A DNA stretch of 64,000 bases, from the NCBI RefSeq assembly GCF_958295425.1, contig NC_081142.1, positions 8,785,754 to 8,849,753 of the forward strand. Direction: 5' to 3'. This document shows, one piece after another, positions 10,038 through 59,300 of the stretch (within the stretch, counting starts at the first letter, position 1; every line of letters starts with the position of its first letter). The stretch comes from Solea solea. Taxonomy: Eukaryota > Chordata > Actinopteri > Pleuronectiformes > Soleidae. The translations under genes were made by a program, and so were the position numbers. The notes beneath the pieces are model-generated. The model had not been told where the DNA came from. It saw nothing but the letters and a program-made list of their open reading frames with translations, and did no database searches.

Positions 10038-10145
10038 TTGTCTCTATGTGGCCCCGTGATGGACTGGCGACGTGTCCAGGGTGTACTTATTGCCCTATGT
10101 CAGCTGAGAGGAGGATAAAGCGGTAGAAGATGGCTGGATGGATGG
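10038..10145 (+). repeat. SINE tail fragment (long family)
   Basis: The stretch with TTGTCTCTATGTGGCC, GTGATGGACTGGCGAC, TGTCCAGGGTGTAC and GGATAAAGCGGTAGAAGATG, ending in GGAT repeats, matches the tail half of the SINE at 24241-24625. The head is missing, as expected after 5' truncation. Confidence 0.7.
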
Positions 10146-23507: not shown

Positions 23508-29458
<5,951 letters not shown>

Positions 29459-30149: not shown

Positions 30150-33100
30150 CTAAAGCTGCTTGATAGTTTGCCCAGCTGCACTAATGTGGTTTATGAGGGT
30201 GTGCAGTTCCTGTAGTTTGGATTCCAGCCACTGTGGTGGAGCAGAAGAGTTGGCTTGGCCCTCAATCAGAGCCTGAAGGGCTTTTAAAGCACTCTCAGCT
30301 GTCTGGATGTAGCGACCGTACTCCTCTGCACTGGTCTCCTGCCGAGCTCTTTTTGGACATGGCTAAGGGGGGAGGAAATATTCATGTTAGTTATTCAAAG
30401 ATGTGTCTACTGTGACTGAATTTTTAACATTGTTTAAAAATAACAAACCGTACTTTTAATAGTAATGTGCTATATGTACAAAACTTACAGACCATTACTC
30501 AGTGAGGTTTTTACCAAGCTAATATATTTTTGAATGGTATTGCAAATATTGAAATGTCACCAACCTTCATAAAATATAATATCTATATGTGTAACTTCAA
30601 AGAGCGTTTTCAAACTTAGGCTTTACAAATAAATGCTGTTTCCAGTTACTTTCTGGTGAACTCACATTTAATTTTCCTCTTTAATCCCCAGTGTTTGTTT
30701 GTCTGTCTGCCAAATTACTCACACCAAAGAAAGCAATGCCTTGGTAAATTCAATGCAACATGCACGGCCTCTAAGTTTTTTAGGGAGTAGTATGATCATC
30801 AAACTCACATTGGCCAGCAGCCGCTCAGTGACTACATGTCACAATGTTGTGCATGAACATGCATTTTCCCAAAGCTTGTGAATAAATTTGAACTAAACCA
30901 AATGATGCTACTAACCTCTGAATCTGTAACAGCTTCAGTAGGCTGTTTGTTACAATCATTTTCTTCCTTGTGTTCCAGCCTCTCATTATGTTGCTCGATC
31001 TCTGCTGTCTCCATCTTGAGCCTGTGTAGCCGTGACTCTGCATCTTCTCGAGCATTAATGGTCTACAACGAAAATAGTCTCGTTCAAATGCGTCAGTTGA
31101 ACTTATGTAAAGGGTCATCACAATGTATCATCATCCCTTACCTTGCTGAGATAATTCACCACCTTTGTCTTTGTTTCTTCGTTGCTCAAACTTTGGGAAA
31201 TGACTTCCTCGTGGTTTGTAACCTTTAATAACAGAAGGGCAAATTAAAGTTTTGTTTGGGCATCAACGGTACCCAGCACTACATCTGAGACATGAATACA
31301 TTCAAAACTTATTCCTCTACTTCTGCAAAATGAGAGAAGGCCTCCAGGGCATGCTGATGTAGCAGCCATGGTCTGTCAGCCAGCAGGACTCCAAACAGAC
31401 TACTCAGCCTCGGCAGAATGTGACTCTGTGGGACCAGACAGTTTTGTGAGAATAAGACTGAAAGTGGTGAGCAAATTCAGAAGCAAATCTTATGTATAGT
31501 CTCAACTGATGATTATAACCATTATTAATTTCCACATGATTATTCCTTCTTTTTTTTTTGTTATTGTCGTATTGGATATGCTTTGACAGATTAAATCTTG
31601 AACCTTTACTGTTTTCTTTTTGATGATCAACACTTCCACCACTATTTAGCATAATCTAAAGAGAAGACCAGTAGAATATATTTTTTTAGGTATCACTGGT
31701 AAGGATTTAAAACTTTTAACTAAAATGTCCAATATATTCAAACCCTTGCAAAATGAGTTCACACAATGCTGGTTAAGCCTGATTAGCGCCACCTGACTGC
31801 TTCTCAGTATAGCGCTATTTATATCTCGTGTTCCCGCGAGACATTTGCGTGCTGCAGTTAAACAGTGTAAAACCCACTTATCCCTGCCCTGCTGATGTAT
31901 ACACATAAATGCTCCCTCAGTCAGGTCTGACTGACAGAATTGCCATCAGACCCGTTACATCACATAACAAATAACGTTACATCATTTCTCATCACAAAGA
32001 CCATACAATCACAAAACACAGCTGCAACTTTAAATTAGTACAAAACTAAAAATCCTCATTTGCAAAAGTGGTTTCAGTACCTGGGTGTCAGCAGGGACAA
32101 AAATCTTCCCCAGGGAGGCCAGGAACTCCAGAGCAGCCAGCAACAGCTGATCTGAACACTTTTGAGACATCAGAGCATCCACACACAACAGTGCCTGGAA
32201 GTAACACGTGCACAAATTCAGTCAACACAAGTGTTCTTCATTTTTCATCAGCTGAAAATTAACACATAGACAATATACCTGACAAATGAATTGAGGGTCT
32301 ACGTTCTTCACCAACACTGTCGACATGGACAAAAGCAGCTGCAGAGTGCACTGGAGCGCAGGCTGGGTCTGCACCTGGAGTGTGACAGATTACTATGGTA
32401 GTTATTTTTGGATTTATACCACATCTGTGTGTACGTGTGTGTGTGTGTGTGTTGTTGGATCTCACCTGATCTGAACTCATGCACAACCAGAGCTGCGTGA
32501 CCATCTTCATAACAGACAACACACACTGTTCTTGGAGAGATGACTGCCCTCGAACTACCACTAGGAGGGACAACAGCACCATGTTCTGGAGACAGGAGGG
32601 ACTCGGTGAATAAAAAATGTGATTGCCATTTTCCATTTCAGTTATACTTGTCTACTTCCTCGCATTGTTTTCTCTTACTTCCAACGCAACTATAATAACA
32701 GTTCACCATCCTGACACAGATGATTGTGGGGTTGTCGAAGATAATTATAAGGTTAGTAAAAGTTCACATCATTCATGTGCGATTATAATTACAATCAGTA
32801 GTACAATCCAGTCTTCTAAAAGCCAACTGTGAACTGTGAACCTTATTCATTTCAATAACATATTGTCAATTATTTGTATTTGCATGTTTATTGTCCATCT
32901 TCTAATGGTTATTGCATTGCATTTTACTTGCAGTACTTTGCATTGGCAAGTGGTGGCTTTAATTCACTCTTCTTTATTTTATCTTTATTTCTGCTATTGT
33001 ATGTGAAAACCTAATTGGCTCATTACCACATCTTCATTGTCACAGCTTGGGTTACAACAAAGGGTAAATGCATATTATGCAATATTAATACTATTTAATA

Positions 33101-36100
33101 ATAAACATTGAAATATTTTATACTGCATACCATAAATGTACATATCACTGTTACACCACCAGCTACATCAATGTTGCCGTCCTCACCAGTTTGTCCACTT
33201 GTCCCAGTTTGTGCCCTCCATTCTGCCAGTCAGTCAGCACTTTTTGAGTTATGCCAATGATGTCCGTCTCCACACGGTGACGGACGTCCTGAGAAAGAGC
33301 TCTGATGAGAACATGACGCCATACTGGTAGGTTCTCCTCTTCCGAGGGTGGGAAACGCATCACCAGCTCCATCTGGGAAAACAAACACTTATGAGAATAA
33401 ATCTCATGGCAAGGTTGTGAGCTAATACAGTGGCTTTTTATGATGTACAAGGACAAAGATACAGGAAAACTTTTATTGCACTGCACATTTAATACTATTT
33501 GTGTTCGTCATTACACAAAAAGCAGCCAGCATACACCGTCCCAGTGATATGGGGCTCTGCCTCTTTGCTAATATTTTATTTGGAGATTTCCTCAAAAACG
33601 ATCTTAGAATATGTCATTATGAATGGCAACATCAACAACACGAGACATGAGCAAAACATTATATACAGTTGATGTTAATTTGTTTAAGACATTACAACAC
33701 ATCACTCCACTTCATTTACACATGCCCTTCATCTTCACCAGAATGTCTATATACAGTAGATTCCACATGCCACCAATGCATTGTGTGATTTGCAACTCAT
33801 TTCTAACCTGGTGGTTTGGCGTCATAAGGAAAACCATTCGTTTGAGCAGCAGGCTCAAGTGGAATAACTGGTAACACTCGGTGGCGCACATCTTCACCTA
33901 ATGGAGAGGAAGGAGAAGCAGACAGGATGCAAGAGACTGTGTGAGTGTCCATGTGAAGGCACAGAAGGAGTAAAATCACCAGGACACCAGGGTGGAAGAA
34001 AGGTGAAGAAGTGAAGCAGAGGGACGTGTATGGAAATCAGTGGGTTCCAGGTTGATCTGAGGACGTTATGGTGAAACGGGTTATAAAAAGGTGTCAGTCA
34101 CCAAGATCCCTCAACACCAATTGTCACCTCTGTTGGGGTGCCACAAAAACAGTGAGGACCCCATACTAGTCTACCAACCCACAGGGTGGGGGAGGGGGCA
34201 TGACATTATTCAGAAAGTTCTCAGGAAGAAGTCCCAGAACTTGTGATTTCTACCAAAGACGGTGGTAGATTTCATAGGTTGAGATGTGATACCATTAACT
34301 CTTGTGTGTCTATAAAAATAAAACAAGTGTTCTATTTCATGTTTTAAGATGCATGTCCATCTCAGATTAAAATAAAGCAGGACCACAAGCCTATTCTTTC
34401 AAGTATGTTGTGCCTTCTGTTCAATTCTACCTACCAGCTGAGCAATGAGGAGGATATGATGTAGACAAAGTTCGGCAGTCCCATACCTGTGTACATATAA
34501 GAAAGAAAAAATCAGCACAAACAATACATTACATAAAAACATGTGCAAAACTGTTTGCAATCAGGCTTTGGAGAAACAGAAGTTGTAAAAAGAGAGTTAT
34601 GTAAAGCAAACTCTGAACAAACAAAAAACAGGTGTACAATATGAACTTTTATCTTGGTAAATCATATACAGTATGGGAACACGCCTGTAAATTAACTGTA
34701 TAAAAAAGACAAACCATTTACAGTTTTGGTGGAAAATACACATTAAGACATTACTCCTGGCTCTCACCGTGCTGTAAAGCACCACACATCTGTTGCCAGT
34801 AAAGCTGTCTGTGTATCAGCCTGCAGGACTGCATCGACCAAACAGCGCTCCTAAAAATTAAACAGAGATAGAGAGAGATAAGGCAAATGGAAAGTAAAAC
34901 AGACAAGGGCGTGACACAGAAAATGGCAATAAACAGAGGAAACTAAAGTAGCCAGAAAACCTTTATCACGGTTAAAGAAAGTGAAAGAATAACTTGCTTT
35001 GAATAACAGGAAATGCCATACTAAAATACAGCCAAGAATAAGGTTAGGTAGCAAACATAAATATAATGAATTTTTGATACAATGGTTATATATTCACACA
35101 AGGGTCATCATTCATTTTCAACACGCTCACACATGTAATTCTATGAATTGCTGTCAAATAATAATGCAGTCTGAAATGGCCTCACCAGCACAGGGAAGTA
35201 AACTGGAGGAAGTGCAGCCACACTGGCACAGAGATGCACGCACATGTGGTGGTGTAGTGTGACTTGGACCTGGGCCTGACCTCTCGTCATCACTCCTGGC
35301 AAGAGCACCGGTACCTTGCGCTCAGTATAACAACGGCGGAAACTAGTGAACAAGGCGCTGTAAAGAGGATGCCTGGCGACAGAGGGGATGTAGAGAAGCT
35401 TTGAAGTGTAAGAAGGTCAAGACTCAAAGCTCCACTCAACTTGAAACTCAAAAAAGAAGCAATGTCAACACATTTCATGTAAAAGGAATTCTCAGTGATG
35501 AATACTACACATATTAACACTAACATTACATTATTGTAATGTATTTTTCACCTCCTGACTGCAAATACATAAATACTGCTGGACCCTGCATCAACACACC
35601 AAAATATCCCATTACCAAAAATTATTATCATTTCTCCAAAATCTTGTATTACCTGGGTGTGTCTTCTGGAAACTGGCTGCCTGTGTGCCAAAGCTGCAGC
35701 ACCTCCTCAGGCTGCGTGACCAGCTGACCCAAGACACTCATCAGCAAAAGACAGTGAGGAAACTCATGCTCAGGACTTAACCCTGCAGAAAAAGACAGGG
35801 ATCATTTTGGTGCTGATTACTGGCTTTTTTACTCAGTCTGTATGTAGAAACATATGATGTGAACGTTCCTTTAATAGTACACATATCAACATTCAAAGGT
35901 GTCAAACTCTGAGCGAGCATTTGGTCTAAAGGTCAATCAAGATAAGACATTGTAGTGATAGTATTTGTAATAAGCAGACTAAATATACTGGGGTGCTATC
36001 AGTGTCAGTGCAGATCAAATCATTTTTTTATTTGGTTTGACCGCTAACTACTGAAAACAATATTTCCAATGCAAAGGAAAACAGAGACGCATCTACGGAT

Positions 36101-39100
36101 CCTGACACAGAATCTGAGAAAAGAGGAAATATAGGACAAACTCACGTAGGTCCTTCCCGAGGACAATCTCAGTGAATGGCCTTAAATGCAACAGCTGAAG
36201 CAGAAGGGCATCCATGGGCACCAGAGCTGCTGCCTTTAACTCCTCAGAGAGAGCTGTGGGCAATGTCTGAGCAGACAAGCTGGGAGGGAACTTACTGAAA
36301 GACAACAGACCCATCTGAGAAAATGTTACAGAAACTCTCACTACTGCCAAGTCAAACTTTAAACTGTGGTCCAAATCCCTTTCTTAAAACTGAAGCCAAA
36401 CCATACGTACCTGACAATCTGAAGGTAAACTTGGTGAAAGCAGCTACAGTGCTTTGTGAGAAAAAATTTAAATTCCTGTTAGATAAAATAGAAAATAAAT
36501 ATGAGTTTACATAACACATCAAGGTGGCATTAAGTATTAATAGATTTAAGAAAGCCGTGAGTAGATTCTTTTTTGTAGCACCTTTATATAATGAACCAAC
36601 GTGTTGGCAAAAAACCTGCTCATCTTTGCACTTTTCTGGAACAGCTTGTATTCTGGACTTTGTGTTGCCACCTTTAAAAAGAAAATTTAAAAGAGTTTGT
36701 TTTTTAAAAAAAACAAAAAAGACTACCTTTGAATTTACATGAATAAACACATCACATACAAGTGTACACCATTCCTTGAAAATGTAGGATGCACTTAATA
36801 GTATATAGGACAGAAATATCCCCCATAATAGCAATTCTAGTAGGGTATCCGATCAGTGAGGAATAAAACGTATTCTACACCAGCACATTTACATCTACAA
36901 AATACATTTCACATGACGGGACAATACAAGTAAAAGATGAACTAAAATCATATTTGATCCTGTATCTGTATTAAAAAAACAATAATAATTTAAAAAAAAA
37001 AAAGCTACAAAATCTCCATGTATCATCTATACTGTATAATTTTGTGACTAGTTCCTACCTGTTGACCAGCATTGGTCATCTGTTCTGCCCACTCCACACA
37101 GCTGTGGAAGGAGGCCAGCAGGTTTTCACACAAGCTGGAACTAATGTCACCATGATGCAGATGTTTCTCTACCAATGAGCGGTACTTCAGACTCTGTCTG
37201 ATCACAAGTAATCACAATTTAATATCATCTCTTATAACAACCTGATAACTTTAGTATAACAGACGAGATTACATTAGAAGAAACAGGCACAAACATGAAT
37301 GTCTGCTTCACTGACTTGATGAGAAATTTCCACGTGTTTGCATGCAGTGCAATGTCCAGGTTGGAAATAATAGAGCAGATATCCAGCAAGCTGTGAATCA
37401 CTGGGGAAGATTTTAAAAAATGTCAATTAATTAGACTGCAATAAATCTATCCTTATTAGCTTACCAGCAAAGAGTGTGGCAGTGACACACAGAAGGATTC
37501 ATATTTATGTATGGTGCAGGTACACACCTGTAACAATGTCAGAGACCTCCTCCTCTGAGGCACTGCTGTCCAGGGTGATACGGTCCAATAGCTCCAATAG
37601 ACCTTTCTGAAGGGAATATGCCTCCTTGAAGAGTCCCTGCAGCAGATCAGCCACCAGTGACAGACGGCCACAGTAAACCACGTCACTCTCCTGGGGACAA
37701 AATGCAAAATCTGCTTATCTTTTTTTTGGTTTGTTTCTCACTAAATTCCAAACCAGTTCAATTAAATTTCAAATCTGTTCAGTTGTTGCTTTCAGATAAT
37801 GACATCTTCATGTGATGATGACAACAGATAAACATTTTGGTCATTAAAGACAGAATAAATAATAAAATGAATTATGAAATGTAACGATTACAGACTATGT
37901 CATTTTTCAGAACTTCCCCTACTTCACTACTATATTGAATGGTACATGTGACATTTAGGAGGTTTATATGCAGTTGGAAAATGAGTATTGAGAATTTATC
38001 ATTGCTTGTTGCGAGCGGGTCTTACAACCGTGTTTCTAGCATTCCAGACATGCATACTTAAAAGTCAGATTCTATTGTATGTATATCACATGCAGACATG
38101 GAAAGTATGACACAGTATTGAACATCTACAGTATCATTTTAGACATCACTAATTCATGAACACTGGACTTTTAAATGTCATAATCAACAGTGTAAACTTG
38201 TTAGTCCAACCAATGCAACCAACTCATTTTACTTAACATAAATCTTGTAGATATTAAAATAGTATTTTTAAAATCCATCCCACAATATTATATAAATATA
38301 TTAAACGCAGTGAGTACATGTTTAACATCCGCTATGGCTTAAAATGCACTCATAACACTATTGCACTGAACGAACTGACCTTGCAGTGTAAAAAAGTCTC
38401 CCTCAGGATTTTCAGGATACAAGTGGGTAACGAGCGAATAGTATCCAGGTCAGGAGCTTCCTCAAATGAGCAAACATGACGAACGCAAGTAGAGAGTGCA
38501 TCAATTAGCTGCATCATTGCCTAAAAACAGACCACAACAGATTGTCAAACAAATGGTTAAAATACTTTGGTGACAACGCACTGGATATCATACACAGCTT
38601 GAACTCATAACTTAATCAGTAAGGGTATAATAATGTGAATAATACAGCTATAATACTAGTACCTGAAGAACATTCCTTAGTAATGCACATAGTTCAGTGT
38701 TTTGACTGGACAGTCCTCCAACTTGGTCTGAGATTTCTTTCATCATGCTGTCGAACACTGACACAGCCTGCCGACATTTCACAATAAGGAAAAGACAGAG
38801 GCAAAACAATATACATAAAAATAAGCTCAATTCACAAGGATACCTTTACAATAACAAAAACAGATACTGAAGACAACATGCTGTTTACCTTTGGTAAGAT
38901 CTTTGAGAAGCATTCATCTTCCAGCTCTGACAAACCAATATGTGGGAGGAACAGGTCTGTAATTATCTTCAGTATACCTGTTGGGATGATATGCATTAAG
39001 AAGACGTTTCATTCGTATTCACAAATAGCAGTCATGGTGCTTACAAACACAAATTTTGCAATTAAGAAACTTACGTAAATGTTCCTCCCAGCTTTCAGTT

Positions 39101-39578
39101 TTAAGCTGCAAAGAGTGTAAACAGTCAAGGAATAACAATGGATTGAAGAAAACTGTGACGTCTAATGTCAAAAGGAATGAAGGGAGGAAGGAACAGGAAA
39201 ATAATCCCAGCTGACATAGGGCTTATGGCAGGGTACACCCTGGACAGGTATCCAGTCATAGAGACAAGCAACCATTCACTCTCACACTCACACCTACGGT
39301 CAATTTAGAGTGTTCAATTTGCCTAACCCCCAATTTTGCAATCATAATCAAATTAAACTGAATACTAATACCAGTAAAGGCAGAGCACCAATAGACATAC
39401 TGGTTGCCAGACAGACAGACAGACAAATGTGTCACAACGAGACGGTAATGAGGACACAAAGTGCCGTACGTATTAGGGATATGTTGAGCTTCGGCAGGAC
39501 AGACTTAAGCTCCTGGCGACAGGTTTCCTGACTCCACTGCACCACTTCCTCCAGGAGAGAAGTGTTGGTCTGGGACAT
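30150..39578 (-). CDS. firrm: FIRRM / C1orf112 homologue (FIGNL1-interacting regulator of recombination and mitosis), 24 coding exons
   Basis: Coding exons 5' to 3' on minus: 39483-39578, 39075-39114, 38889-38977, 38663-38767, 38380-38520, 37528-37690, 37316-37400, 37059-37197, 36582-36671, 36411-36475, 36146-36294, 35653-35782, 35186-35372, 34768-34850, 34435-34486, 33808-33897, 33187-33372, 32466-32585, 32279-32374, 32081-32194, 31321-31425, 31142-31222, 30916-31062, 30150-30362; 2766 nt, 921 aa. Recognised from blocks such as GLSSQNTE, LFKEAYSLQK, FHSCVEWAEQMT, KFPPSL, HHHMCVHLCA, ECYQLFHLSLLLKR and NHEEVISQSLSNEETK, all in the order of human C1orf112. The protein is an all-helical, HEAT-like scaffold with no catalytic motif. 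Family role: partners FIGNL1 to remove RAD51 from chromatin in homologous recombination and crosslink repair. Intron 1 fits an AT-AC intron; all others are GT-AG. Confidence 0.95.
39115..39482 (-). other. Candidate U12-type AT-AC intron (firrm intron 1)
   Basis: No GT donor joins exon 1 to exon 2 in frame. Taking ATATCCCTAA as donor, TTCCTTGAC as branch site and AC as acceptor (branch A to intron end 10 nt) gives phase-0 joining: ...VLPKLN|SLQLKTESWEEH, the same length as my recollection of the human protein. Donor hexamer ATATCC and branch site fit the minor-spliceosome consensus. A SINE fragment sits inside the intron. Confidence 0.8.
39205..39335 (-). repeat. Truncated SINE (same body as 24241-24625) in firrm intron 1
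   Basis: Blocks such as CAACCATTCACTCTCACACT, GGTCAATTTAGAGTG and GGGTACACCCTGGACAG match the body of the full-length SINE in scyl3 intron 1, in the same orientation. The tRNA-like head and the extreme tail are missing. Confidence 0.7.
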
Positions 39579-44456: not shown

Positions 44457-46554
44457 CTATTTTTTGTCATCGGACCAGGTGATGTCATAGTTGCTGAAGA
44501 CAATCTTCAACTTCTCCGCAGTTACAGAATGGTCTGCTTTGCCAAAGGCCTGAAAATGAGTAAAATTAGAAAATGAGTCAAAAACAGTGCGGGGGATCAT
44601 TAAATTCAGTTTTTTAATGCTTTTACAATGACATTTCTTCCATGACATTTGGCACAAACATCTGTGATGATTAGAAAAATTATCTATTCATACAGCCGTC
44701 ACAAAGGCCCCCACACTTCCTGTTTTCAAATCGCGTTTAAAAACCTGTTTTATTCTGAATGTGTCTTTAATGTGTAACTCATGTGCTTTATTACTCACAG
44801 TTGATTCTCCAAACACCCTTAGTTTTTTCTCTTGGCTGTTGTGCTCAATTTTCCCTCCTCCTAAGCATTTACACTCCATTCCCAAGGCCTCCATTGATGG
44901 AGCGACCTTCTCAAATATGTGATCTGTAAATAAATCAAAATATAAAAACTGGGTTTAGTTATAGCACAGCCAAACATTCATGTCTAGGACATATAGCCCT
45001 TTTGCATTGAAGATATCAAGGTTGGCATCTGGCAAATAGTAAACTCAGGTCTGATTCAAATGAGTTCACACGATGCTGAGTAATGCCAACCCCACACTAG
45101 AGGATTTTCAAATCTGACAAAAAACATGGGAGACCACAGAAACAACGAACTTTGTAACTGATTTTCAATATTTTAATCCTGACGAAGATAGATGATCCAG
45201 TCAAGACGCAGGACCACAACCATGGCTTTTAATCAAACAACTTCAGGGAGGAGATTCCAGGGATTTGGGATCTCACAGAAACCAGCGTGATTTAATGTGA
45301 CTTCAGAATGTAAACAGACATGGAGGCGGACTGTCTGTCTTGCAGGACACATCAAACAATCATACTGTTGCCTTAAATCCACAAGTTTGTCCTCTTTCTC
45401 TACCATCAGCTGACAGAGATGTTCTTCACATTTTTCAGTTGCACATTTCAAACATGTTTAATACTTACTAAAATCAGAAGGAAGCCACGATTGTTGGAGT
45501 GGTCAGATCAGGACCGAAATCTGGCCAATTTATCCTCTAGTGTGGGGCAAGCTTAAAGGAATACTTCACCAATTTGCATGTGTCTTTGTATTGCTAGAAT
45601 AGCAGTATTTTAAAAAAAAATTTTGCTTCCCTCCCTCAGTTTTCCACTTTCCAACTTTGCCCTACGCTAACCCTAAACTACAACGCCAGTTCCGCACTTT
45701 TTAGACTCACCCATAGGGGGACAAGACTTCATTCCCCCATCTTTTCTAACAGTTACACTTACCAGCTCTTGCTCTGCAGAGTACATTACATTACATTACA
45801 TGTCATTTAGCAGACCCTTTTATCCAAAGCGACTTACAAGGGAATTGAGTGACAACCTACCAGGGGTGGAGTTGAAGTTGCGACCATAAAGTCTTTTGCA
45901 CACAGGGTCTAAACCACTGAGCTACCCCACCCTGTCAGAGTAAATTGAGAAGGACAATGATCGAATGTAGAATGTATAGTTTTCAAAGTGATATGGCCGC
46001 AAGGGAAAATGCCTGCATTTCGGTGAAAACTAGAAGCAGATTTGTGTGTTTACACAATATTATTTCCCATTTCTACTAAATAGATGATGCAGTTTTAATA
46101 GACATTCACCTTTCCAATTGTGAAATATGCCTTTAAGCCTATCAGTCACTTGTTGCATCACTTCTGTTCACAAAAAAACAAACTGAGGCAGAAATAATGA
46201 CATCAAATATCTTGCCAAAAGTTACACACTGCAGCTTTAAATCTGCTTGATCAGACCGCACATTACATGTTAGCAAGTTGCATCAAATCAAACACGATAA
46301 TGGGTGACACCAGCACATGTCTATGCATAAACACACATGTCTTGCTTTGCACATTGGAGTGAAAGTGACGCACTTGAAGCTCCTCAGCCGCAAACTACAG
46401 GGACAAACTTACTGTGGTACTCTGCACTCTTAGTGCCGCGCACTATGTCTTTATGCGAATCGCCATCTTTCACTTTCACTCTGACCAGTATGTACTTGAA
46501 GGTTCCCTCTGGATCGATCTCCACCTCGGGGATTTTAGCCAGAGCGTCTGCCAT
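44457..46554 (-). CDS. phpt1: 14-kDa phosphohistidine phosphatase, 3 exons
   Basis: Coding exons: 46413-46554, 44799-44923, 44457-44549; 360 nt, 119 aa (human PHPT1 is 125). The N terminus MADALAKIPEVEIDPEGTFK continues into YILVRVKV, then VRGTKSAEYHNHIFEKV, CLGGGKIEH, KKLRVFGES and a C-terminal EKLKIVFSNYDITW. H47 corresponds to catalytic His53 of human PHPT1 and K20 to the conserved active-site lysine. The enzyme removes phosphate from protein histidine; known targets in mammals include KCa3.1, TRPV5 and Gbeta1. Being spliced, it is not a processed retrocopy. Intron 1 (1.5 kb) carries a Harbinger-like MITE and a SINE. Its neighbours differ from human, where PHPT1 is on chromosome 9. Confidence 0.96.
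45090..45547. mobile_element. Harbinger-like non-autonomous DNA transposon in phpt1 intron 1
   Basis: A 458-bp element with terminal inverted repeats: the left end reads CCCCACACTAGAGGAT and the right end is its exact reverse complement (ATCCTCTAGTGTGGGG). It is flanked on both sides by the trinucleotide CAA (45087-45089 and 45548-45550). A 3-bp target duplication fits the PIF/Harbinger superfamily. A 72-codon minus-strand ORF (45233-45451) carries [15 protein letters not shown], possibly a remnant of the element's MADF-type protein. Confidence 0.75.
45784..45935 (-). mobile_element. tRNA-derived SINE, short family, copy 1 (phpt1 intron 1)
   Basis: A 152-bp element beginning with CATTA repeats and the block ATCCAAAGCGACTTACAA. 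Read on the minus strand, the opposite end looks like a tRNA head (GGGTAGCTCAGTGGTTTAGA, then a B-box-like GCAACTTCAACTCC). It is flanked by a 7-bp duplication CAGAGTA (45777-45783 and 45936-45942). Confidence 0.75.
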
Positions 46555-48613: not shown

Positions 48614-51600
48614 ATGGTGAGTTCACAGCTATTAGTTTACATTGCTTAACATGCTTGTGGTCAATATTGCATTTATCTTAATTGGTCCTTTTCACTTACT
48701 TTTTACATTTTTGCAGGAGATGTGCTTTGGATTACTTCAGACCCGTGGATCTAAGATGTTTTCCTCATGGATCTGCTTGACCCTTCTTTATTCAAGTATG
48801 TAAATTGAACGCAAAGATTACCTGAAGTGTCCCACTTTTGTCTTTCTAGTAATAATGTATGAAATTTTTCCTCAGTGCTGTTAACGTGGACCAGTGTTGA
48901 CAGTTGGTCTTACTACTACTCCAACACCACCATGAACTGGCAAGACGCTCGAACCTGGTGCCAGGATCACTACACAGACATGGTGGCCATCCAGAACCAG
49001 GAAGAAATCAAGCATCTCAATGACTGGCTGCCCTACAAAAAGACATACTACTGGATTGGGATCCGCAAGATCGAAAGTGTCTGGACCTGGGTAGGCACCA
49101 AGAAAGCTCTGACAGCAGAAGCGACCAACTGGGCAAATGGTGAACCAAACAATGGCAAGACTCCATATAGCAAGGAGGATGAGGATTGTGTGGAAATGTA
49201 CATTAAAAGGGATGCAGAGCAAGGCAAGTGGAATGACCAGAGGTGCGGAAACATGAAAACGGCTCTGTGCTACACAGGTGAGTAAATGTTTGGAAATAAG
49301 ATGTAACCGTTCTTGTTCAATTTAGATGTTTTTGCCGGTGGTGTTGCAGAAAAGAAAAGCTCACAAAATGATATATTCTTCCTTCTCTATAGCTGCCTGT
49401 AAGAATGACTCGTGTCGCTATGGAGACTGTGTTGAAACCGTCAACAGCCACAAGTGCGCTTGTTTTGAAGGCTTTCATGGAGAGACGTGTGAGCAAGGTA
49501 AAAAAAAAAATACAAATTATGTTGCACTTTTCAAAGTTCACTCCATGTCACTTACCTGGAAACTAATTGTGTCTTTGTTTCCTCTGCTGCCAGTCGTTAC
49601 ATGCAAAAAAGAGGAAGTGACTGTTCCATATAAAGGAAATGTAAGTTGCACGCACATGTATGGAAACTTCTCCTACAACTCCTCGTGTGAGTATTCCTGC
49701 GAGACAGGATACCAGCTAACGATGCCAAGGCCCTTGAGATGCACTGCGACACAGAAGTGGTCAGAGGAGCCTCCTGCATGTAAATGTGAGTTACTGGGTT
49801 TTGCAAAACTTTAAGAATGAAATGAATAATAGTGTTGAGTTCACACCAAGAGGAACATACGTGCTGTTTCACAGTAACTGAACATGCTGTACTGTGTTTT
49901 CACAGTGGTTCAGTGTCCGGTGCTGTCTTCTCCAGCAAGAGGGTCCATGATGTGCACAAATCCCCTGGGCCCGTCCAGCTACCTGTCCACCTGTGTGTTC
50001 ACCTGTGATGAGGGCTTTGCACAAACTGGTTCTCCATCTAACACTCTGCAGTGTGGAGCGTCAGGTCGTTGGAACGCTTCACAGCCATCTTGTGTTGGTA
50101 AGCTCATAAACTGTATTTGATTTTAACTTCCTGGGTCTCCATTATCCTGCAGCATTTTATTATTGCCAAGAAAAAAGGCTGCTGCTGACTTCTTCTACTG
50201 CGCCTCTGTTTTGCAGCTATCCCAGTGCCTGCTCCACAGGAGCTAGAGAACGGCTTTGTCAGCTGTGGAAATGTAGACGAAACGTTCATCCCCAGAAGAT
50301 CCTGCAAATTCAGCTGTGCCTCTGGCTACCGCCTGGTGGGGCCGGACACGTTGACATACACAGCAGCGGCTGAGCTGAGTGAAAATACACCTCGGTGTGA
50401 AGGTGAGGATGCACTTTCAATGTAATCCCACACCTCATATGCATATGATGTATGATATAATTTCAAGTGCTGTGCCTTTGTGACCAACGCGGTCAATATA
50501 ATATGATTTAATATTTTCCCCTGTATTAGCAATCACTTGTCGGAAACCAGAGGGAGACACTCAGCTGATCCCGAAGTGCAGCAAATCACTCGCGGAGCTG
50601 CGACCAGGCTCCACCTGCAGCTTCAGCTGTGGTGCAGGCTTTAAACTGAAGGGAGTGGACACGATTCAGTGTTCTGATGATGGGAAGTGGAGCAAACCTA
50701 CACCAACCTGCCAAGGTATGGAAGCAGATTTTCACATAAACCTGCACATCTGATGCTACTTTAATATCTTTCTCACAGGTGCTTTTGTGATCTGATTTTG
50801 TGCTGTGTCATGACATCTGTTTTTTAAATTTATTCTTTTAGCAATAACATGTCCTGCTCCTGAGATTCCAACAAATGGCCAGATCAGCTGCAGCCTTTCA
50901 CTTCCCTCACCTTCTCTCACCGAGGCCTCTCATCCACTTGGTGTGATCTGCACTTTTAGCTGTGATGAGGGCCACGAGCTCCAAGGATCACACAGCATGG
51001 AGTGTGGACATCCAGGCCAGTGGACCTCTGCACCACCAACCTGCACAGGTATAGATCTATGTGTTTCTGTGTTATATGAACTGCCTGTTCAGATGTTTTA
51101 TGGTCTTCTTTATCAAAATGTGATGGTTAAGAGCAAACATCTGGCTGTTTTCCCACAGTTGTAAGCTGCCCACTGCTCAAGGCTCCTGAAAATGGTTTAA
51201 TTAACTGCTCAAACAATGAGACAGTGTACAACTGTCAGTGCTCCTTCACATGCAATCAAGATTACACACTGAATGGACATGAGCTGTTGACGTGCAATCA
51301 TCATGGCAACTGGACTGGAGAGAGACCAACCTGCCAAGGTAAAAAAAAATGAATAAATGCTTCATGAAACTTGCAAATCACATCACACACAAAACACAAT
51401 CTTGCATTTAAAGCATCAATTAATTAAAAATGTCATAATGTTTCCACAGCCTCGCCATCTGAAGTTTCTGCTCTTGCCTCTGGTGCGGCAGTAGGGGGCG
51501 CCCTATTAAGTGCTGGCTCTCTGGCTATATGGTTCCTGAAACGGGCCCTGAAGCAGAAAAAAGACACGTTTGAGTTGAGCAGGTAAGATGAGCATTCATG

Positions 51601-51737
51601 TGTCTCCTGTCAGACTAAAAAATAACAATGAAATGAATGGAAGGGCAGTACTCATCCAATTTTGTCTTTACAGCTCCTCCGACATAGAAGCCCCTCCTAC
51701 AGAGGTCTACAGAAACAGCACTGACAGCCTCATATAG
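48614..51737 (+). CDS. sele: E-selectin-type adhesion receptor, 6 SCR modules, 12 coding exons
   Basis: Exons: 48614-48616 (ATG only), 48717-48795, 48876-49277, 49393-49497, 49594-49785, 49906-50097, 50217-50402, 50530-50715, 50842-51048, 51159-51338, 51450-51582, 51674-51737; 1929 nt, 642 aa. An alternative start is the ATG two codons later (48720). Order: signal peptide, C-type lectin (about aa 38-160), EGF (163-196), six sushi/SCR domains (197-577), transmembrane helix (about 583-604) and a short tail. The lectin keeps the selectin calcium ligands: EPNN, the E before DC, and WND. SCR3 lacks two cysteines. Six SCRs and position next to firrm match human SELE. Family role: calcium-dependent binding of sialyl-Lewis-x glycans for leukocyte rolling on endothelium. 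Orthology within the selectins rests on synteny, so the letter is less certain than the family. Confidence 0.92.
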
Positions 51738-52043
51738 AACATGATGACACTATGAGGACAAATGCATTTTCAACATATCTGTATAATGATTGTATACTGC
51801 TTGTTATTCTTTTAACGGAAAAACCCAGTATGTCATGTATGGTGGTTTATGCTTTGCAGAATTGTTGTTTCCTCTCTAATGTTGTTAAGACATGTACTGA
51901 ATTTCCTCCCAGTGGGAGTTTTAAATTGAACATATTGTTCTACAGCTTCATAAACATAATGGATGGTGGTTACATTATGAGTGGATTTGTGTAATCTGTG
52001 AATAACCTGCTATTGATGCCAGTATTTATGTACTATTTATTTC

Positions 52044-52207
52044 ATTACATTACATGTCATTTCATTTAGCAGACGCTTTTATCCAAAGCGACTTACAATG
52101 GAATTGAATACAATCAGCCAGGGGTGGAGTCGAATTTGCGACCATTGCGACCATGATGTCTTTCGCACACAGGGTACCGGTCTTAATCACTGAGCCACTC
52201 CGCCCCC
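52044..52207 (-). mobile_element. tRNA-derived SINE, short family, copy 2
   Basis: Same family and orientation as 45784-45935. Shared blocks include TTTATCCAAAGCGACTTACA, CAGGGGTGGAGTC and GCACACAGGGTACCGGTCTTA. It lies in the sele-sell gap, just downstream of the sele 3' UTR. I could not identify a clear target duplication. Confidence 0.75.
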
Positions 52208-52675
52208 GGTTAATGCATTTGAAATGTTTGTTATTATATATGTATGCTTAAAACATAAAATGTCAAAACCATCATTTGCTTTTGGTCTTTTATTAATTTA
52301 TTTGTGTTCCAGTGTCGTGGCCTATATGATCAAAGACATTTATATTCAAATATAGCATTGTGTCATGTGGTACACCGGCATGACTAGTCAGGGCTACACA
52401 CACCAACACATTATTTCCACATTTGAAGCAATAACATATCATGTATTTTTTCAGGGCTCCAGGAAGATGGAGGCCAAATACAACATACAGACTGCTTATC
52501 TGTCCCCATTTCCCCAGTACAAGGGTCAGGAAAAAGGGCAAGGGAAAAAAGGGCTATATTGCCTGAGTAATCTGATTTATAGATCATCACCATTGTTTTT
52601 ACCGCAAAGAATGCAGAGTTTACTGTGTCAGCACTTTAGCTGGAGCACAAATAGATTACATGTCAGGAGCAAAGC

Positions 52676-52800
52676 ATGCCCTGTGATGGACTGGGGATCT
52701 GTCCAGGGTGACCACACCTTTAGCCCTATGTCAGCTTGGATTTAGAGACCCCCGCGACCTTCCTGTGGAAGATAAAGCGGTAGAATATGAGTGAGTGAGT
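52676..52800 (+). repeat. SINE tail fragment (long family)
   Basis: Blocks CCTGTGATGGACTGG, GTCCAGGGTG, CCCCCGCGACC and AAGATAAAGCGGTAGAA followed by GAGT repeats match the 3' half of the SINE at 24241-24625, in the opposite strand orientation. The tRNA-like head is absent. Confidence 0.7.
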
Positions 52801-53280
52801 GAGGAGCAGAGCAGCACGAGATACGTGGAGTTATTGTAATTAAATTTTTATTTGGAGTAGTAATAATAATGATCATCGTCCTCGTCATCATCATCCTTAT
52901 CCTTATTATCTTTATTCACAGAGCACTTCTCAAACTAAAGATTCAAAATGCTGCACAAATAAAAGCACAGGTTTAAAATGTAAAATAAAAAAAAAAATAG
53001 AAACACACGATATATATATATATATATATATATAAACGAATAATCAAATATTAAAATATGAGCATGACCGACCCTAACAAAAATAAAGGTAAAATCTAGA
53101 AATGCAGGACGATAAAAGTACATTTTAATCCTTGTTTCATTCCCTTCATGGATTATTTCCCAGAAAAACTGCCAATGACTTTCCCAAAAGGTCTGTTCGA
53201 GTATAATGAGTCATAAGTCAGTCAGTCAGTCATTCATCACATACATTCAAGCTGCAAAATAAACATCCAGGTATTCTACA

Positions 53281-53447
53281 ATTACATTACATTTCATGTC
53301 ATTTAGCAGACACTTTTATCCAAAGCACCTTACAATGGATATGAGTACAATCAGCCAGGGGTGGAGTCAAACTGCCGACCATTGCGACCATGATGTTTTT
53401 CGCACACAGGGTACTGGTCTTAATTACTGAGCCACTCCACCCACCAA
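53281..53447 (-). mobile_element. tRNA-derived SINE, short family, copy 3
   Basis: Very similar to the copy at 52044-52207, including TACAATCAGCCAGGGGTGGA and GACCATTGCGACCATGATGT, in the same orientation. It sits about 160 bp upstream of the sell ATG, so it may border the sell promoter. Confidence 0.75.
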
Positions 53448-53605
53448 TAACGTTGGGCTGAATAGCCTGCGAACAATATAAAAATCACTGACACTGAGAC
53501 TAACTTTCACTCACTCACACTCACACTGCTGTGGCGTGTTGATATAAATTTGATGGGATTGGATTTCTTGTCACTGGCAACTGGTTAAAGTAGATCACAC
53601 TGAAA

Positions 53606-55757
53606 ATGAAGTGGACACTAATCCTCCTCGTTGGTGAGTAGATTTTAATACTAAAGAAAAACGTAGTAGTTGCTGAGTTGTGCAAATGTGCATGAACTCT
53701 TTCACACTGGATGATGTTGTCCTGTTATATTATTACCCTACTAGGTATCTCCTTGGCTAACACTATTTTGAGTTGGACGTATCATTACTCAAACAACACC
53801 ATGAACTGGACCCAGGCCCGACAGTATTGCCAGACCAATTTCACAGACATGGTGGTCATCCAAAGCCAGAAAGAGAATGACTATATTGTCTCCCTGCTGC
53901 CAAACAAAACTAAATCCCCATATTATTGGATTGGAATCACCAAAAAACACATAAAAGAAATTTGGACCTGGCTTGGGAATAACAGCACATGGATTGGTAA
54001 CGCATCATGGGCAGAAAATGAGCCCAACAACAACCACAGCACAGAGTTCTGTGTGGAGATCTACACCAGCACAGGAAAAAACCGAGGGAAGTGGAATGAC
54101 GAGAAATGCTCAAATTCCAAACACCCAGTTTGTTTCAAAGGTGTGTAAAGAAAAAAGAAAACAATTTTTTGCATTGTCATTGTTTCAAAAGAGATTTTAG
54201 TATTTTACTTTTTCTGGACAGCCCAGTGTAACGCAAAGTCATGTGTCAGAGGATCATGTCAGGAGACCATAGAAAACACAACCTGCCACTGTGAAATCGG
54301 CTTTAAGGGAGACAGGTGCCAAACAGGTGAGGAGAGAGCTTTTTGATTTCCCCACATCCTTAAAATACTCACATACCCATATGTACAATGTCACAGCTTG
54401 TATTTCTAATTATTTGTCCTTCACATTCTAACTGGGAAGGGTTTCCTATAGCAACAAGAATCAAGCGGCAAAATCCACAGTGCTTTTTATTATAATAAAT
54501 CAATTGTCTAAGTTTAAACAGTGTATTTGCATTGCATGCAGTTGCATTAAGTGGCTTTAATGCATATTTGTACATATATATATTGAGATGGGATCACATG
54601 ATGAGCATATTTGCATGGAATAATTATTTTTATTGAGTACATACATATGCGGCTGTTGCTATACATTTCACACAGCACGCACTTTGATGGCATATTCACC
54701 ACTTCATAATTGTGTACCGCTGAAAATTGATAGCTGAATGCAACATTTGCTCAAATGTGCAAACTAGTTAGCAGCTGCTGTACGTGTTTGCTATCAAGGT
54801 TGTCATATGAGCACTGACCTTCAAGCACTGAAGCACGCAGCTCTTCTTCAGAGCTGAAACAGAATTTTAACATCCCCTCATCTGTTTCCTCTGTTTCCTT
54901 AGGTTAGGCAGAGCATCGTGCACAAAACTGATCAAAGTGCTCACATCAGCTTGTTTGTAGTCAATAAAGAATAGAAGGCTATTGTAGGCTCTTATATAAC
55001 TGGGTCCCTATTAACCTTTAACCTGTTTCTACTCACAGCCGTGGAATGCCCCCAGCTGCCCCAGACTGATAACGGAGATTTTAGCTGTCCTGGAGGAAAC
55101 CAGACATTTAACTCAACCTGTCAGTTGAAATGTCACTTTGGGTTCCTGCCTACTGTCCCGCTCGCCATCACCTGCGGGGCCAATGGTCTCTGGACTGGCC
55201 CAAGACCAATTTGTAAAAGTAAGTTTTGCATATCTTGAAGTGAGAATTAATTGTCAAAATCCAGTCTGGTAGGCTGTTCATAGCACTGGTAGTAAAGCAG
55301 CAGCAGCACCATCAGTACTAGTGGTCATGGGAGTAGTAAAAAAGGAAAGTGCTCTGTACTGAATACTAAAACACATTCTCCTCAGGTTATAAACAGGCCC
55401 TTTTGGCTATGGCTGGATGTGCAGCGTTGCTTGTCCTCTGCTGCGTCTGTTTCTGCTGGATGAAACGCAGAAAAAGTCAGTGTTTCTCAATGACGCTTGA
55501 TTGAAATAAGAGACGCAACGCAGCCTCATTGCAACACCTCAACAGTGAACTGTTTGTCCATTCATTTCCCACAGGAAAGAAGCTTGCAAGGTCAGTGTTG
55601 AAACTGCACACAAAGCAGCTCCACCCACTGAGGCACCAAGTGTGAGCTTCACAATTTAAAGAATTGATGTGTATGAAAATGTTGACGGTGTCAACTGCTT
55701 GTCCCTTATAGGAACCCCGGAGAAACAACAAGTCCTTCCAGTGAAGTGCATGGATAA
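53606..55757 (+). CDS. sell: L-selectin-type receptor with a single SCR, 7 coding exons
   Basis: Exons: 53606-53633, 53745-54140, 54222-54326, 55039-55218, 55386-55475, 55575-55590, 55712-55757; 861 nt, 286 aa. Signal peptide MKWTLILLV..., C-type lectin (about aa 18-140) with EPNN, the E two residues before the Cys of FCVEIY, and WND intact, EGF (142-176), one complete six-cysteine SCR (177-236), transmembrane helix (about 240-260) and a basic juxtamembrane stretch MKRRKRKKLA resembling the RRLKKGKKS region of human L-selectin. Human SELL has two SCRs, so this is shorter. The last exon is supported by the polyA signal 30 bases after its stop; reading on through exon 6 without splicing would instead end at a TGA near 55644. 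Named by its position between the 6-SCR and 10-SCR genes. Confidence 0.85.
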
Positions 55758-55787
55758 AGGACAAGTGCAACCTTATTTGTCTTTTAA

Positions 55788-55793
55788 AATAAA
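55788..55793 (+). other. sell polyadenylation signal AATAAA
   Basis: AATAAA 30 bases beyond the stop codon of the proposed last exon (55712-55757). It supports that exon as terminal. Confidence 0.7.
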
Positions 55794-56021
55794 GACACAG
55801 TCACAGTTACTCATATTCATTTTTATAAATAACACATGCTATATGCCAAAACACATTGGATAAGTTGGTTAATTTTCTCTAAAACACTGTATGTTAGATT
55901 AGAATTCACTAGATTTTCGTGTGATAGTGCAGCAGATTATATATACCTAAAGTGCTTTTATTGTACGAACATCAAAAGTTGCATTTGTTAAATTTAAATC
56001 GAATTCAATAAAGTGCATTTG

Positions 56022-56045
56022 AGTGTGTGTGTGTGTGTGTGTGTG
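56022..56045. repeat. (GT)n microsatellite between sell and selp
   Basis: About twelve GT repeats in the 550-bp sell-selp gap. Nothing else recognisable was seen in that gap apart from the sell 3' end and the selp 5' flank. Confidence 0.9.
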
Positions 56046-56304
56046 CTTCCGTTGTGTTGTGGGTGGTACAGTACTGCCCTTCCTGAAAGGATGTAATGGT
56101 AAAAGTGATGTTACTTAATCGTTGACATCCTCCCCAGAAGACAATTAATATATTATCCATTGATCATGCAGTAGATGCACGGACAAGGATACATAACCAG
56201 GGCAGATTAAATGGTAAAACCTGAACATTTTTCATGCATTCATATATGTGTATTCACATTCATAAGCAGTTATTGAGTGAAGAATATTTATCTTTTTATG
56301 TCAG

Positions 56305-59300
56305 ATGTCTCAAAAACAGGTTCACACTGGACGGAGGCTGCATCATAAGGTGCTAATAGCAGCATTTTTTGTTTTTACCCAAGGTAAGTTTACACAGTCC
56401 TACAGATACAAAGGTGTAGGCTTCACCAGTTCACTTTAATCTCATCATCCATATACCTACAATCTCAGATATGAGCAGCGCTCGGGCATGGACCTACAAC
56501 TACAGCACTAGTCCAAACCGGAGGTGGATTCAGGCCAGTCAGTGGTGCCGGCAGCACTTCAAGGACATGGTCACCATCCAGAGCAGGGAGGAGACTGACT
56601 TCATCAACAATCTGCTGCCTTTTAATTCAAAATATTACTGGATAGGCATTCATAAAGTGGATGGAGTGTGGACCAGGGAGGGAAGCAATGAGAAAGTGCC
56701 AGAAGATGATCAGAATTGGGCTCCAGAGGAGCCTGATGACATAGCAGGACAGGACTGTGTGGAGATGTATATCAAGAGGGCGAGCGACACAGCAATGTGG
56801 AACAATGAAAAATGTCACAGTAAAAAGGGAACAGTCTGCTACTCTGGTAAATCACACTTCATTTTGTTTGACTGGCACATGAAACTGATTCTTGCAGACT
56901 TAATATAGCACACAAGATGTGTTTCTGTGTGTATGTAGCCTCTTGTAAACAGGATTCCTGCAGTGTCCATGCAGACTGTGTGGAGACCATAGGGAACTAC
57001 ACCTGCAGGTGCCATCCTGGTTTCCTTGGACCACGCTGTGAAGAGGGTGAGGGGAAAGAAATGATAATATTGACACATGACTTCTTTATATGGTGAGTTG
57101 AACAATATCAGTTTTTTTTTGTTTGTTTTTGATTTTCTCTTCAGCCATCTCATGCAAACCACTGCTGGATCCAGAACATGGTTTTCACAACTGCTTCCAC
57201 TCCTATGGTTCTCATCATTTCAATTCTTCCTGCCATTTCCGCTGTGAACTTGGGTTTCACTTAGTGGGAGCGTCCAAAATGTTGTGCCAAACCACTGGAC
57301 TCTGGGACCACCATGCTCCTCTGTGTCAACGTATGCCCACTGATTATCACTAATGTCAAAAGAAGTAACAGTCTCAGACGTTGAAGTTGCAATTAAAACA
57401 GTTCTCCCTGCCTGTTGTAGCTGAACAGTGTCCAGTTCTGAACCACACCGACAGCAGCGGAGGTAGTGTGAACTGCAGCCACCCCGTCGCACCTTACAGC
57501 TACAACTCCACCTGTGAGATCAGGTGTGATGAGGGCTATGAGCTCAGTGGAGAGGGCTGGACACGCTGTGACCACACTGGCCAGTGGACAGCCAGTGCCC
57601 CAGCATGTACAAGTAAAGTCTTTTTTTTTAATTTCAGTAAGAACAAACTGACCAAAAACATTTTAAATTAACGTTCATAAAAGCTCTTTGCTGTGAGGCC
57701 TTATCTGACTATTGTTAAATATGTTTTAATGCAAGTTACTTTTTTTGTATTACTTGCCCTTGTTAATGGATTCACTGCCACCTTTTACTACTAGTTATCT
57801 TGCCTCAGTGTGTAGTCACATCCTGTGCAGACTGAAGCAGACCAGAGGCAGGTCATAGCTGTCATCGCTTCACTTCACACTCCTTTATGTCTGTTTCCCC
57901 CGGCAAACAATATTGAAATGTACTGTGGGCAAGCACTTGCTGTTTTTTCCTTGACTTATTTTTCGCATGATTATTCACACCACCACCTCATGCTATGTGT
58001 ATAAAACGAAGCGTCATCATCATCATACACAGCTCAGGATGTTGATTTTCAATGAGTGGGGCTTTGTTTAATTATCTGAATCTCCCCCTCAGTAAAGATG
58101 TGCAACCCCATTTTCTTTCCTGTGAACGGCAACGTGACATGTGTGCACACTCTGGAGCCTTTCTCATTTGGTACACAGTGTAACTTCACCTGCCAGGAGG
58201 GCTACTACATGTCTGGAGACAACACACTCAACTGTCTGGCTTCAGGGGAATGGAGCAAACCTACACCCACGTGTACAGGTGTGTGACAGAATTTCCGTGT
58301 AATTTCTACAGTATGTTTGTAGAGCCCTTATTTCTTTGCTGCGTACTGATGGGTCATAATGTTTCTTCCTGTTCAGTGGTAAAGTGTGGCAGTCTAGTGG
58401 CTCCACCTAATGCTGCCTCAGTGCAATGCCAAGGCCCTTTAGGAGAGTACAGCTATGGCTCAACATGCATTGTACAATGTGAAGAGGGATTTGATCTGAT
58501 TGGCACAAATGTGACACAATGTTCTTCACACGGAAACTGGAGTCACACACTTCCGCTCTGCCAGGGTATGACGAGTAAACATACTAATGATGAGTATGAA
58601 GAATAACCTGCTCCCCTCCTCTTTTAACAATCAGTTCATGTACTGTGTGTAACTGACATTGTTCCCTTGTCTGTCACCTTTCAAGCCAAGAGGTGTGATC
58701 CCAGGAGTCCTCCTTCTCACGGCTCCATTTCCTGTTCTGACCCCAATGGTTCCTTCAGTTTTGGTTCTCAGTGCACGTCAAGATGTGATGAAGGTTTTGT
58801 CCTGAATGGGACAGCGAGCACTAAGTGCACCTCCCTGGGAACATGGAGCGCAGGCAACCCACAATGCTTGGGTAAAGAAAAAGCTAAAAGCTGCATTGTG
58901 GCTGAGATTACTTTATGGTTCATATTGCAATACCACATTAAACTAAAATATCCTCTGGCCTTCCTGTCTGTTTTCTCCCAGCTAAAAGTTGCCTCTCTCT
59001 GAACTCTCCTGTATACGGCTCCTTGAAATGCTCGGATCCACATGGAGAGTTCAGTTTTGGTTCTCGGTGCACATCGACCTGTGGTGATGGTTTTCTCCTG
59101 AATGGCAAGGCTTCCACAGAGTGCACCTCTCTGGGCACGTGGAGCTCAGACATCCCACTTTGCATGGGTAAAAAAATATTACGCCCTCTATTTTTTACTG
59201 CTAAATCAAGAGAATATCTCCTGAATTAATAGTTAAGATCAAATGACTGCACATATTTACAGCTAAGATCAACTCTCTCTGTCTTTCTATCTCTTTTACC

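What the first reader, a model, noticed from the sequence alone, without database searches (positions are those of the whole stretch)
39115..39482. firrm intron 1 looks like a minor-spliceosome AT-AC intron
Seen: no GT donor after exon 1 gives an in-frame join. ATATCCCTAA as donor, a perfect TTCCTTGAC branch site and an AC acceptor 10 nt beyond the branch A give a phase-0 join whose protein length equals the human one as I recall it. Known: AT-AC introns with ATATCC donors and TTCCTTRAY branch sites are spliced by U11/U12. Inference: correct expression of this recombination regulator depends on the minor spliceosome; a SINE fragment has landed inside without destroying the signals.
Basis: partly seen in the sequence, partly recalled or inferred. 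Interest (0 to 1): 0.75.

Follow-up and report, generated by a model that had tools for sequence, protein, structure and literature searches.

The report
Minor-spliceosome first intron of firrm
The first coding intron of the sole's firrm DNA-repair gene is a rare AT-AC intron of the kind removed by the minor spliceosome; it is a conserved, essentially ordinary feature, but the protein start that it leads to is missing from some gene models and apparently from a human form used in experiments.

Summary
The minus strand carries firrm (C1orf112). A public Solea solea protein matches it in 24 exons at 921 of 921 residues. Intron 1 (39482-39115, 368 nt) is the only one of 23 without a GT-AG solution; of three borders giving the same mRNA only AT-AC is a known type. 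Donor ATATCCCTA, TTCCTTGAC and AC 10 nt past the branch A are present. Of 16 fish and mammal models with an intact exon-1 end but no same-length join, 14 continue with I-S, as ATATCC would encode. Eight fish models picked by eye leak codons compatible with the branch motif. A U12-type intron in human C1orf112 is in print, though I could not see which one. So this is an ordinary conserved minor intron. Less ordinary: exons 1-2 encode a conserved N-terminus, predicted to be the first helical hairpin. By length arithmetic the 853-residue human form of two functional papers lacks it; one of them reports rescue by its wild-type clone, so the stretch may be dispensable. Minor-spliceosome dependence is inferred; no reads were seen and the genome search did not complete.

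The parts
39483..39578 (-). firrm coding exon 1 (residues 1-32, MSQTNTSLL...SVLPKLN)
   Evidence: Exact match to P0002 residues 1-32
39115..39482 (-). Intron 1, AT-AC, 368 nt, phase 0
   Evidence: Only one of 23 introns without a GT-AG solution; three equivalent borders, of which only AT-AC is a known type
39473..39482 (-). U12-type 5' splice site ATATCCCTAA
   Evidence: Sequence; scan
39124..39132 (-). Branch-site motif TTCCTTGAC, branch A at 39125
   Evidence: Only perfect TTCCTTRAY on the minus strand of the window
39115..39116 (-). AC 3' end of the intron, 10 nt from the branch A
39106..39107 (-). In-frame AG 9 nt downstream of the AC end (possible AT-AG acceptor, 3 residues shorter)
   Evidence: Sequence; 0 of 84 fish hits with an intact exon-1 end show the 3-residue-shorter join
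39075..39114 (-). firrm exon 2 (residues 33-46, SLQLKTESWEEHLR; the codon of residue 46 is split by intron 2)
39203..39335 (-). SINE-like fragment inside the intron, without the tRNA-like head, sense orientation (same element assumed for the 24-kb copy and its head)
   Evidence: blastn to 24305-24456, 75%, E 7e-27; tRNA-like stretch near that copy at 24558-24614, minus strand
30153..39578 (-). Whole firrm coding region: 24 exons, 22 GT-AG introns and one AT-AC intron
   Evidence: 921 of 921 residues of P0002; Pfam DUF4487 in P0002, E 1e-228

Best explanation
Intron 1 of sole firrm is a conserved AT-AC, U12-type intron. U11 would pair with ATATCC at the donor and U12 with TTCCTTGAC; the minor spliceosome would cut after AAC (39483) and after AC (39115), joining ...PKLN to SLQLKT... 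Shown here: the sequence signals, the join in the annotated sole protein, the same-length join in orthologues, and ATATCC-compatible donors in other fish and mammals. Inferred: recognition by U11/U12 and the need for it in expression. Reading on from exon 1 into a retained intron gives 48 codons and then a stop, and sole has leucine at residue 54 where most sampled fish and all sampled mammals have a methionine that could serve as a downstream start. So in sole the normal N-terminus depends on this splice.
For: P0002 (named Solea solea isoform X1) matches 921 of 921 residues, including the join. 22 of 23 introns have a GT-AG solution; intron 1 has only AC-AC, CA-CA or AT-AC. Motifs. Of 120 hits listed for the sole query (398 found; the named ones are fish), 84 have the exon-1 end intact: 72 same-length join, 10 continue with IS[SC], 2 have a shorter join with nothing inserted. 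Of 120 listed for the human query (624 found; the named ones are mammals), 97 matched the exon-1 pattern: 92 by script plus P0236 on inspection have a same-length join (P0228 with I for S), 4 continue with ISF, which ATATCCTTY would encode. Background tripeptides fit RTATCCTT without mismatch in 11 of 4800 and with at most one in 78 of 4800. Acceptor side: of eight leaks picked by eye, 6 can encode a perfect TTCCTTRAY with an AC end and 2 need one mismatch; background peptides ending in H/N do so in 3 and 310 of 4800. Clusters with source 'lgn', on contigs of 2.9-6.1 kb while the sole gene spans 9.4 kb: 5 of 6 from the fish search and 3 of 3 from the mammal search carry the join. Human C1orf112 U12-type intron: PMC3564746, PMC8329584.
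Against: Donor position +7 is C. The branch-to-acceptor distance of 10 nt is below the stated optimum of 11-13, though five of the eight leaking models also imply 10 and three imply 11 (counted by hand). Phase 0 is under-represented among U12 introns. A CAG after a pyrimidine-rich stretch follows 9 nt later. The leaking models are not independent: several are close relatives (three notothenioids share one peptide, two cichlids and two clownfishes another). No RNA reads were seen.
Confidence: 0.96

Rival explanations
1. Twintron in use: a U2-type GT-AG intron or an alternative 5' exon competes with the U12 intron, giving an N-terminally shortened protein as well as the full one (not exclusive of the best explanation).
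For: Human C1orf112 is one of 18 listed human twintrons, with external U12-type and internal U2-type intron. The 853-residue 'U2-a' length equals 911 minus 58, a start at Met59 of human isoform 7 (arithmetic mine). 26 of 120 fish hits show no exon-1 peptide in their first 230 residues, and 15 of these start at the equivalent MFLPH; one of them (P0081) is an 'lgn' cluster.
Against: In sole the equivalent residue is Leu54. The in-frame GT/GC joins tested have weak donors. The fish models starting at MFLPH may be annotation failures. The tabulated U12 length 718 (equal to a start at Met194) is unexplained, and the supplement naming the human intron could not be read.
Confidence: 0.25
2. The intron is U12-type but ends, wholly or partly, at the CAG 9 nt downstream (AT-AG), dropping Ser-Leu-Gln in frame.
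For: The AG is in phase and 19 nt from the branch A.
Against: AT-AG is described as disfavoured (passage). 0 of 84 fish hits with an intact exon-1 end show a 3-residue-shorter join. At that codon 60 of the 75 aligned rows have His and 12 Gln, so the CAG is not generally conserved. P0002 uses the AC end.
Confidence: 0.1
3. AT-AC borders are right, but the major spliceosome removes it (U2-type AT-AC intron).
For: AT-AC termini are not exclusive to U12-type introns (passage of PMC3584512).
Against: The donor and branch motifs are named there as the defining U12 features, and compatible codons recur where gene models leak.
Confidence: 0.03
4. An annotation or assembly artefact: the real join uses GT-AG with different exon borders.
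For: 41 GT/GC..AG joins keep the frame in the range tested.
Against: Each of the 12 best printed (of 41) inserts or deletes residues against the same-length join of 72 of 84 fish and 93 of 97 mammal hits. Their best donor (-0.3, a GC) is below 20 of the gene's 22 other donors, two of which are weaker still (-0.5, -2.7); the score table is recalled.
Confidence: 0.01

Closest known systems
AT-AC subtype of U12-type (minor) spliceosomal introns
   Same: ATATCC donor, TTCCTTRAY branch motif, AC end close to the branch A, signals recurring in orthologues, DNA-repair host gene
   Different: +7 C in the donor, distance 10 nt, phase 0
Human C1orf112/FIRRM U12-type intron (twintron of Janice et al. 2013, PMC3564746)
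   Same: Orthologous gene; four mammalian read-throughs place an ATATCCTTY-compatible donor at the same residue as in fish
   Different: Which human intron the paper means was not seen; no competing U2-type intron was shown in sole

Membership tests
U12-type (minor) intron, AT-AC subtype | 5' splice site close to RTATCCTT (consensus recalled) | tested here: met
   ATATCCCT, one deviation at +7
U12-type (minor) intron, AT-AC subtype | Branch motif TTCCTTRAY near the 3' end (consensus recalled) | tested here: met
   TTCCTTGAC at 39132-39124, 9 of 9
U12-type (minor) intron, AT-AC subtype | Short branch-to-3' distance, optimum 11-13 nt | tested here: inconclusive
   10 nt from A to last intron base; optimum from a passage of PMC3584512; 10 in five and 11 in three leaking fish models, counted by hand from the peptides
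U12-type (minor) intron, AT-AC subtype | AT and AC termini at the used junction | tested here: met
   Of three borders giving the P0002 join, only AT-AC is a known type
U12-type (minor) intron, AT-AC subtype | Signals conserved in orthologues | tested here: met
   Indirect, from leaking gene models: 14 of 16 non-standard continuations fit RTATCCTT with at most 1 mismatch, 2 insert nothing; 8 of 8 hand-picked acceptor leaks fit TTCCTTRAY with at most 1 mismatch
U12-type (minor) intron, AT-AC subtype | No distinct polypyrimidine tract | not tested
   Not scored; a short pyrimidine-rich stretch precedes the CAG at 39108-39106
U12-type (minor) intron, AT-AC subtype | Splicing needs U11/U12/U4atac/U6atac | not testable with these tools
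   Needs RNA from depleted cells; the own-genome snRNA search did not complete
[quoted passage not shown]
   Only weak in-frame GT/GC donors in sole; no RNA; human case in print

The most novel reading that the evidence does not exclude
This minor intron gates the true N-terminus of vertebrate FIRRM. The first 53 (sole) to 58 (human) residues are about as conserved as the rest and are predicted to form the first helical hairpin; they are reached by U12-type splicing of intron 1. The 853-residue human form described in functional papers would start inside the second helix and lack them. Minor-spliceosome activity would then set the ratio of complete to truncated FIRRM, and perhaps its hold on FIGNL1 and RAD51.
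Probability: 0.3. Interest if true: 0.6.

Novelty: new member of a known kind. Interest (0 to 1): 0.36.

Why it matters
The intron itself is ordinary for its class. It matters because annotation stumbles over it: of 120 listed fish hits, 26 show no exon-1 peptide in their first 230 residues and 10 read into the intron. The human form described in two functional papers (853 residues) equals a start at Met59 of the 911-residue isoform, so a conserved N-terminus may be missing from experiments on FIRRM, FIGNL1 and RAD51. It also makes FIRRM a candidate to watch when minor splicing fails. Both points can be tested directly.

Tried and rejected
Solved structures: no relative of FIRRM by sequence; three weak ALKBH5 hits (E 0.8-0.9) were ignored. 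Pfam on the N-terminal 211 residues: none. Rfam on the window at gathering scores: no spliceosomal RNA, only a tRNA-like stretch and a LINE 3' element. Paper searches: FIRRM with minor spliceosome gave 0 papers; FIRRM with 911 gave one unrelated listing; one search was too broad. One passage of a zebrafish zrsr2 paper (PMC9501576) and its term search did not mention this gene. Motif co-occurrence alone was rejected as proof. The donor score uses a table recalled from memory; only donors up to 60 nt into the intron and acceptors between 39330 and 39076 were tried.

Rows dropped or chosen. The eight acceptor leaks (P0056, P0058, P0072, P0089, P0097, P0099, P0107, P0110) were picked by eye. P0043, P0066, P0087, P0092, P0103 and P0105 were left out because the residues before exon 2 were not clearly continuous with it; P0043 and P0087 seem to carry exon 1 in another frame. 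In one search four of the 75 'same-length' rows (P0051, P0058, P0066, P0072) are not true exon-1 joins and P0021 belongs with the true ones, which gives the 72. In one search the pattern mis-sorted P0236. Models with a damaged exon-1 end (36 of 120 fish, 23 of 120 mammal hits) are outside the counts. The 40 rows of alignment A1 were chosen by me from the 240 listed hits and all have an intact N-terminus, which favours the N-terminal conservation figure. Only 120 of 398 and 120 of 624 hits were listed.

Full report
What is there. The minus strand of the window carries firrm (C1orf112), coding exons from 39578 down to 30153. [quoted passage not shown] It matches the window at 921 of 921 residues in 24 exons, so the window is most likely common sole or a very close relative. 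Pfam gives DUF4487 at E 1e-228 for P0002. Neighbouring ORFs fit the human order SCYL3 - C1orf112 - selectins, an order that I recall: weak kinase and HEAT matches below Pfam's cut-offs at 24.8-26.9 kb, and three clear C-type lectin ORFs from 48.9 kb on, with a sushi repeat confirmed in the one ORF tested.

The junction. For each of the 23 introns I listed all borders that reproduce P0002. 22 have a GT-AG solution. Intron 1 has three equivalent solutions (AC-AC, CA-CA and AT-AC), of which only AT-AC is a known intron type. It runs from 39482 to 39115 (368 nt, phase 0), with donor ATATCCCTA, TTCCTTGAC at 39132-39124 and AC 10 nt from the branch A. An in-frame CAG lies 9 nt further on.

More than chance? 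In 200 first-order Markov simulations of the window, ATATCC with a perfect branch motif within 400 nt and an acceptor is expected 0.17 times per window, both strands. Over 5 kb the window has 52 donor-branch pairs with an acceptor against 69.6 simulated, so the motifs in themselves are not enriched. Their placement is the evidence. From the counts (45 RTATCC cores and 4 perfect branch motifs in 128,000 positions), a core exactly at one border and a branch motif within 12 positions of the other would coincide about once in 8 million (my arithmetic).

Comparative evidence from gene models that fail. No DNA of other vertebrates was available, but models that cannot handle an AT-AC intron leak intron codons into the protein. 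Of the 120 hits listed for the sole query (398 found), 84 have an intact exon-1 end: 72 show the same-length join, 10 continue with I-S-S or I-S-C, and 2 have a shorter join with nothing inserted. Of the 120 listed for the human query (624 found), 97 matched the pattern: 93 have a same-length join (P0236 sorted by hand, P0228 with I for S) and 4 continue with I-S-F, exactly what ATATCCTTY would encode. Background tripeptides fit the donor without mismatch in 11 of 4800 and with at most one in 78 of 4800; the 10 fish cases need one mismatch, the 4 mammal cases none. On the acceptor side, eight fish models picked by eye run from intron into exon 2 (for example FLDCLH|SLH). Six can encode a perfect TTCCTTRAY ending in AC and two need one mismatch, against 3 and 310 of 4800 background peptides given an H/N end. 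These models are not independent; some are close relatives. The implied distances, counted by hand, are 10 nt in five and 11 nt in three, so the sole distance looks normal for fish although the stated optimum is 11-13 (passage of PMC3584512).

Transcript-like evidence. Protein clusters with source label 'lgn' come from contigs of about 2.9-6.1 kb, while the sole gene spans 9.4 kb, so they should be spliced RNA. That 'lgn' means assemblies of public reads is my reading. 5 of 6 such clusters from the fish search and 3 of 3 from the mammal search carry the join; the sixth starts at the exon-3 methionine.

What is in print. PMC3564746 (parts 1 and 2 of 3 read) lists human C1orf112 among 18 human twintrons, with 718 residues for the U12 variant and 853 and 606 for two U2 variants. 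PMC8329584 (passages) names it as an external U12-type with an internal U2-type intron. The human intron number is not in the text I saw. Human isoform 7 has 911 residues with methionines at 59 and 194; 911 minus 58 is 853 and 911 minus 193 is 718. So two of the tabulated lengths equal downstream starts, which points to the 5' part of the gene; but a U12-spliced transcript should give 911, and the 718 stays unexplained. The searches, in this library only, gave no paper on this intron in sole.

Consequence. Residues 1-53 of sole are about as conserved as the rest: 79% and 50% identity to 22 fish and 17 mammals, against 76% and 45% for residues 54-921. The rows were chosen with an intact N-terminus, and within it the exon-2 part is the weaker (52% and 37%; exon 1 88% and 53%). 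An AlphaFold2 model from 40 rows (mean pLDDT 81.9, pTM 0.70) puts residues 17-37 and 41-58 in two helices, with block pLDDT of 82-87 over residues 11-60. The splice junction (32|33) falls inside the first, and the residue equivalent to human Met59 inside the second. The 853-residue human form would therefore lack the first helix and most of the second. Two papers describe human FIRRM/FLIP as 853 residues (PMC10825145, PMC10411901; passages). The first reports that removing the N-terminal 227 residues impairs FIGNL1 binding. Against a vital role of the hidden stretch: the same paper's wild-type clone, probably the 853 form, supports cisplatin resistance, and PMC10484675 predicts the FIGNL1-binding groove at mouse residues 429-799 (passages). 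Sole has Leu54 in place of that methionine (M in 20 of 23 fish rows and 17 of 17 mammal rows), and reading on into the intron gives 48 codons and a stop. So in sole the usual downstream start is absent.

The repeat. 39203-39335 matches 24305-24456 (75%), with shorter matches at 52689-52742 and 10019-10109. Near the 24-kb copy lies a tRNA-like stretch, 24558-24614, minus strand. I take these as one tRNA-derived SINE, of which the intron holds only the tail, in sense orientation, between intact splice signals.

Verdict. The observation and the reading are right; the intron is an ordinary conserved member of the AT-AC minor class. Dependence on the minor spliceosome is inferred from signals and class. 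The point worth following up is the hidden N-terminus.

Noticed in passing
window 38952-38954 (exon 3, residue 54 of firrm): Sole has Leu where 20 of 23 aligned fish rows and 17 of 17 mammal rows have Met (MFLPH); 15 of 120 listed fish hits start at that Met, as the 853-residue human form would.
   Followed up: yes
window 48863-60852, + strand: Three C-type lectin ORFs (48863, 53696, 56420; Pfam) with sushi-like ORFs (one tested): a selectin-like tandem cluster next to firrm, as recalled for human 1q24.
   Followed up: partly
window 24305-24625, - strand: What looks like a near-complete tRNA-derived SINE with a tRNA-like stretch at 24558-24614, related to the fragment in intron 1.
   Followed up: partly
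window 52056-52109, - strand: UnaL2 LINE 3' element by Rfam.
   Followed up: no
window 27365-27562 and 45236-45457, - strand: Two ORFs share a peptide like KEDKLVDL.QQYDCLMCPA, perhaps copies of one mobile element; no Pfam hit for the second, the first not tested.
   Followed up: no
window 17486-20148, - strand: LIM-domain ORFs (one confirmed by Pfam, 17486-17785) of what looks like a paxillin/leupaxin-like gene; the name is recalled.
   Followed up: no
human C1orf112 entry in Table 1 of PMC3564746: The U12-variant length 718 equals a start at Met194 of the 911-residue form, which a U12-spliced transcript would not need; unexplained.
   Followed up: partly
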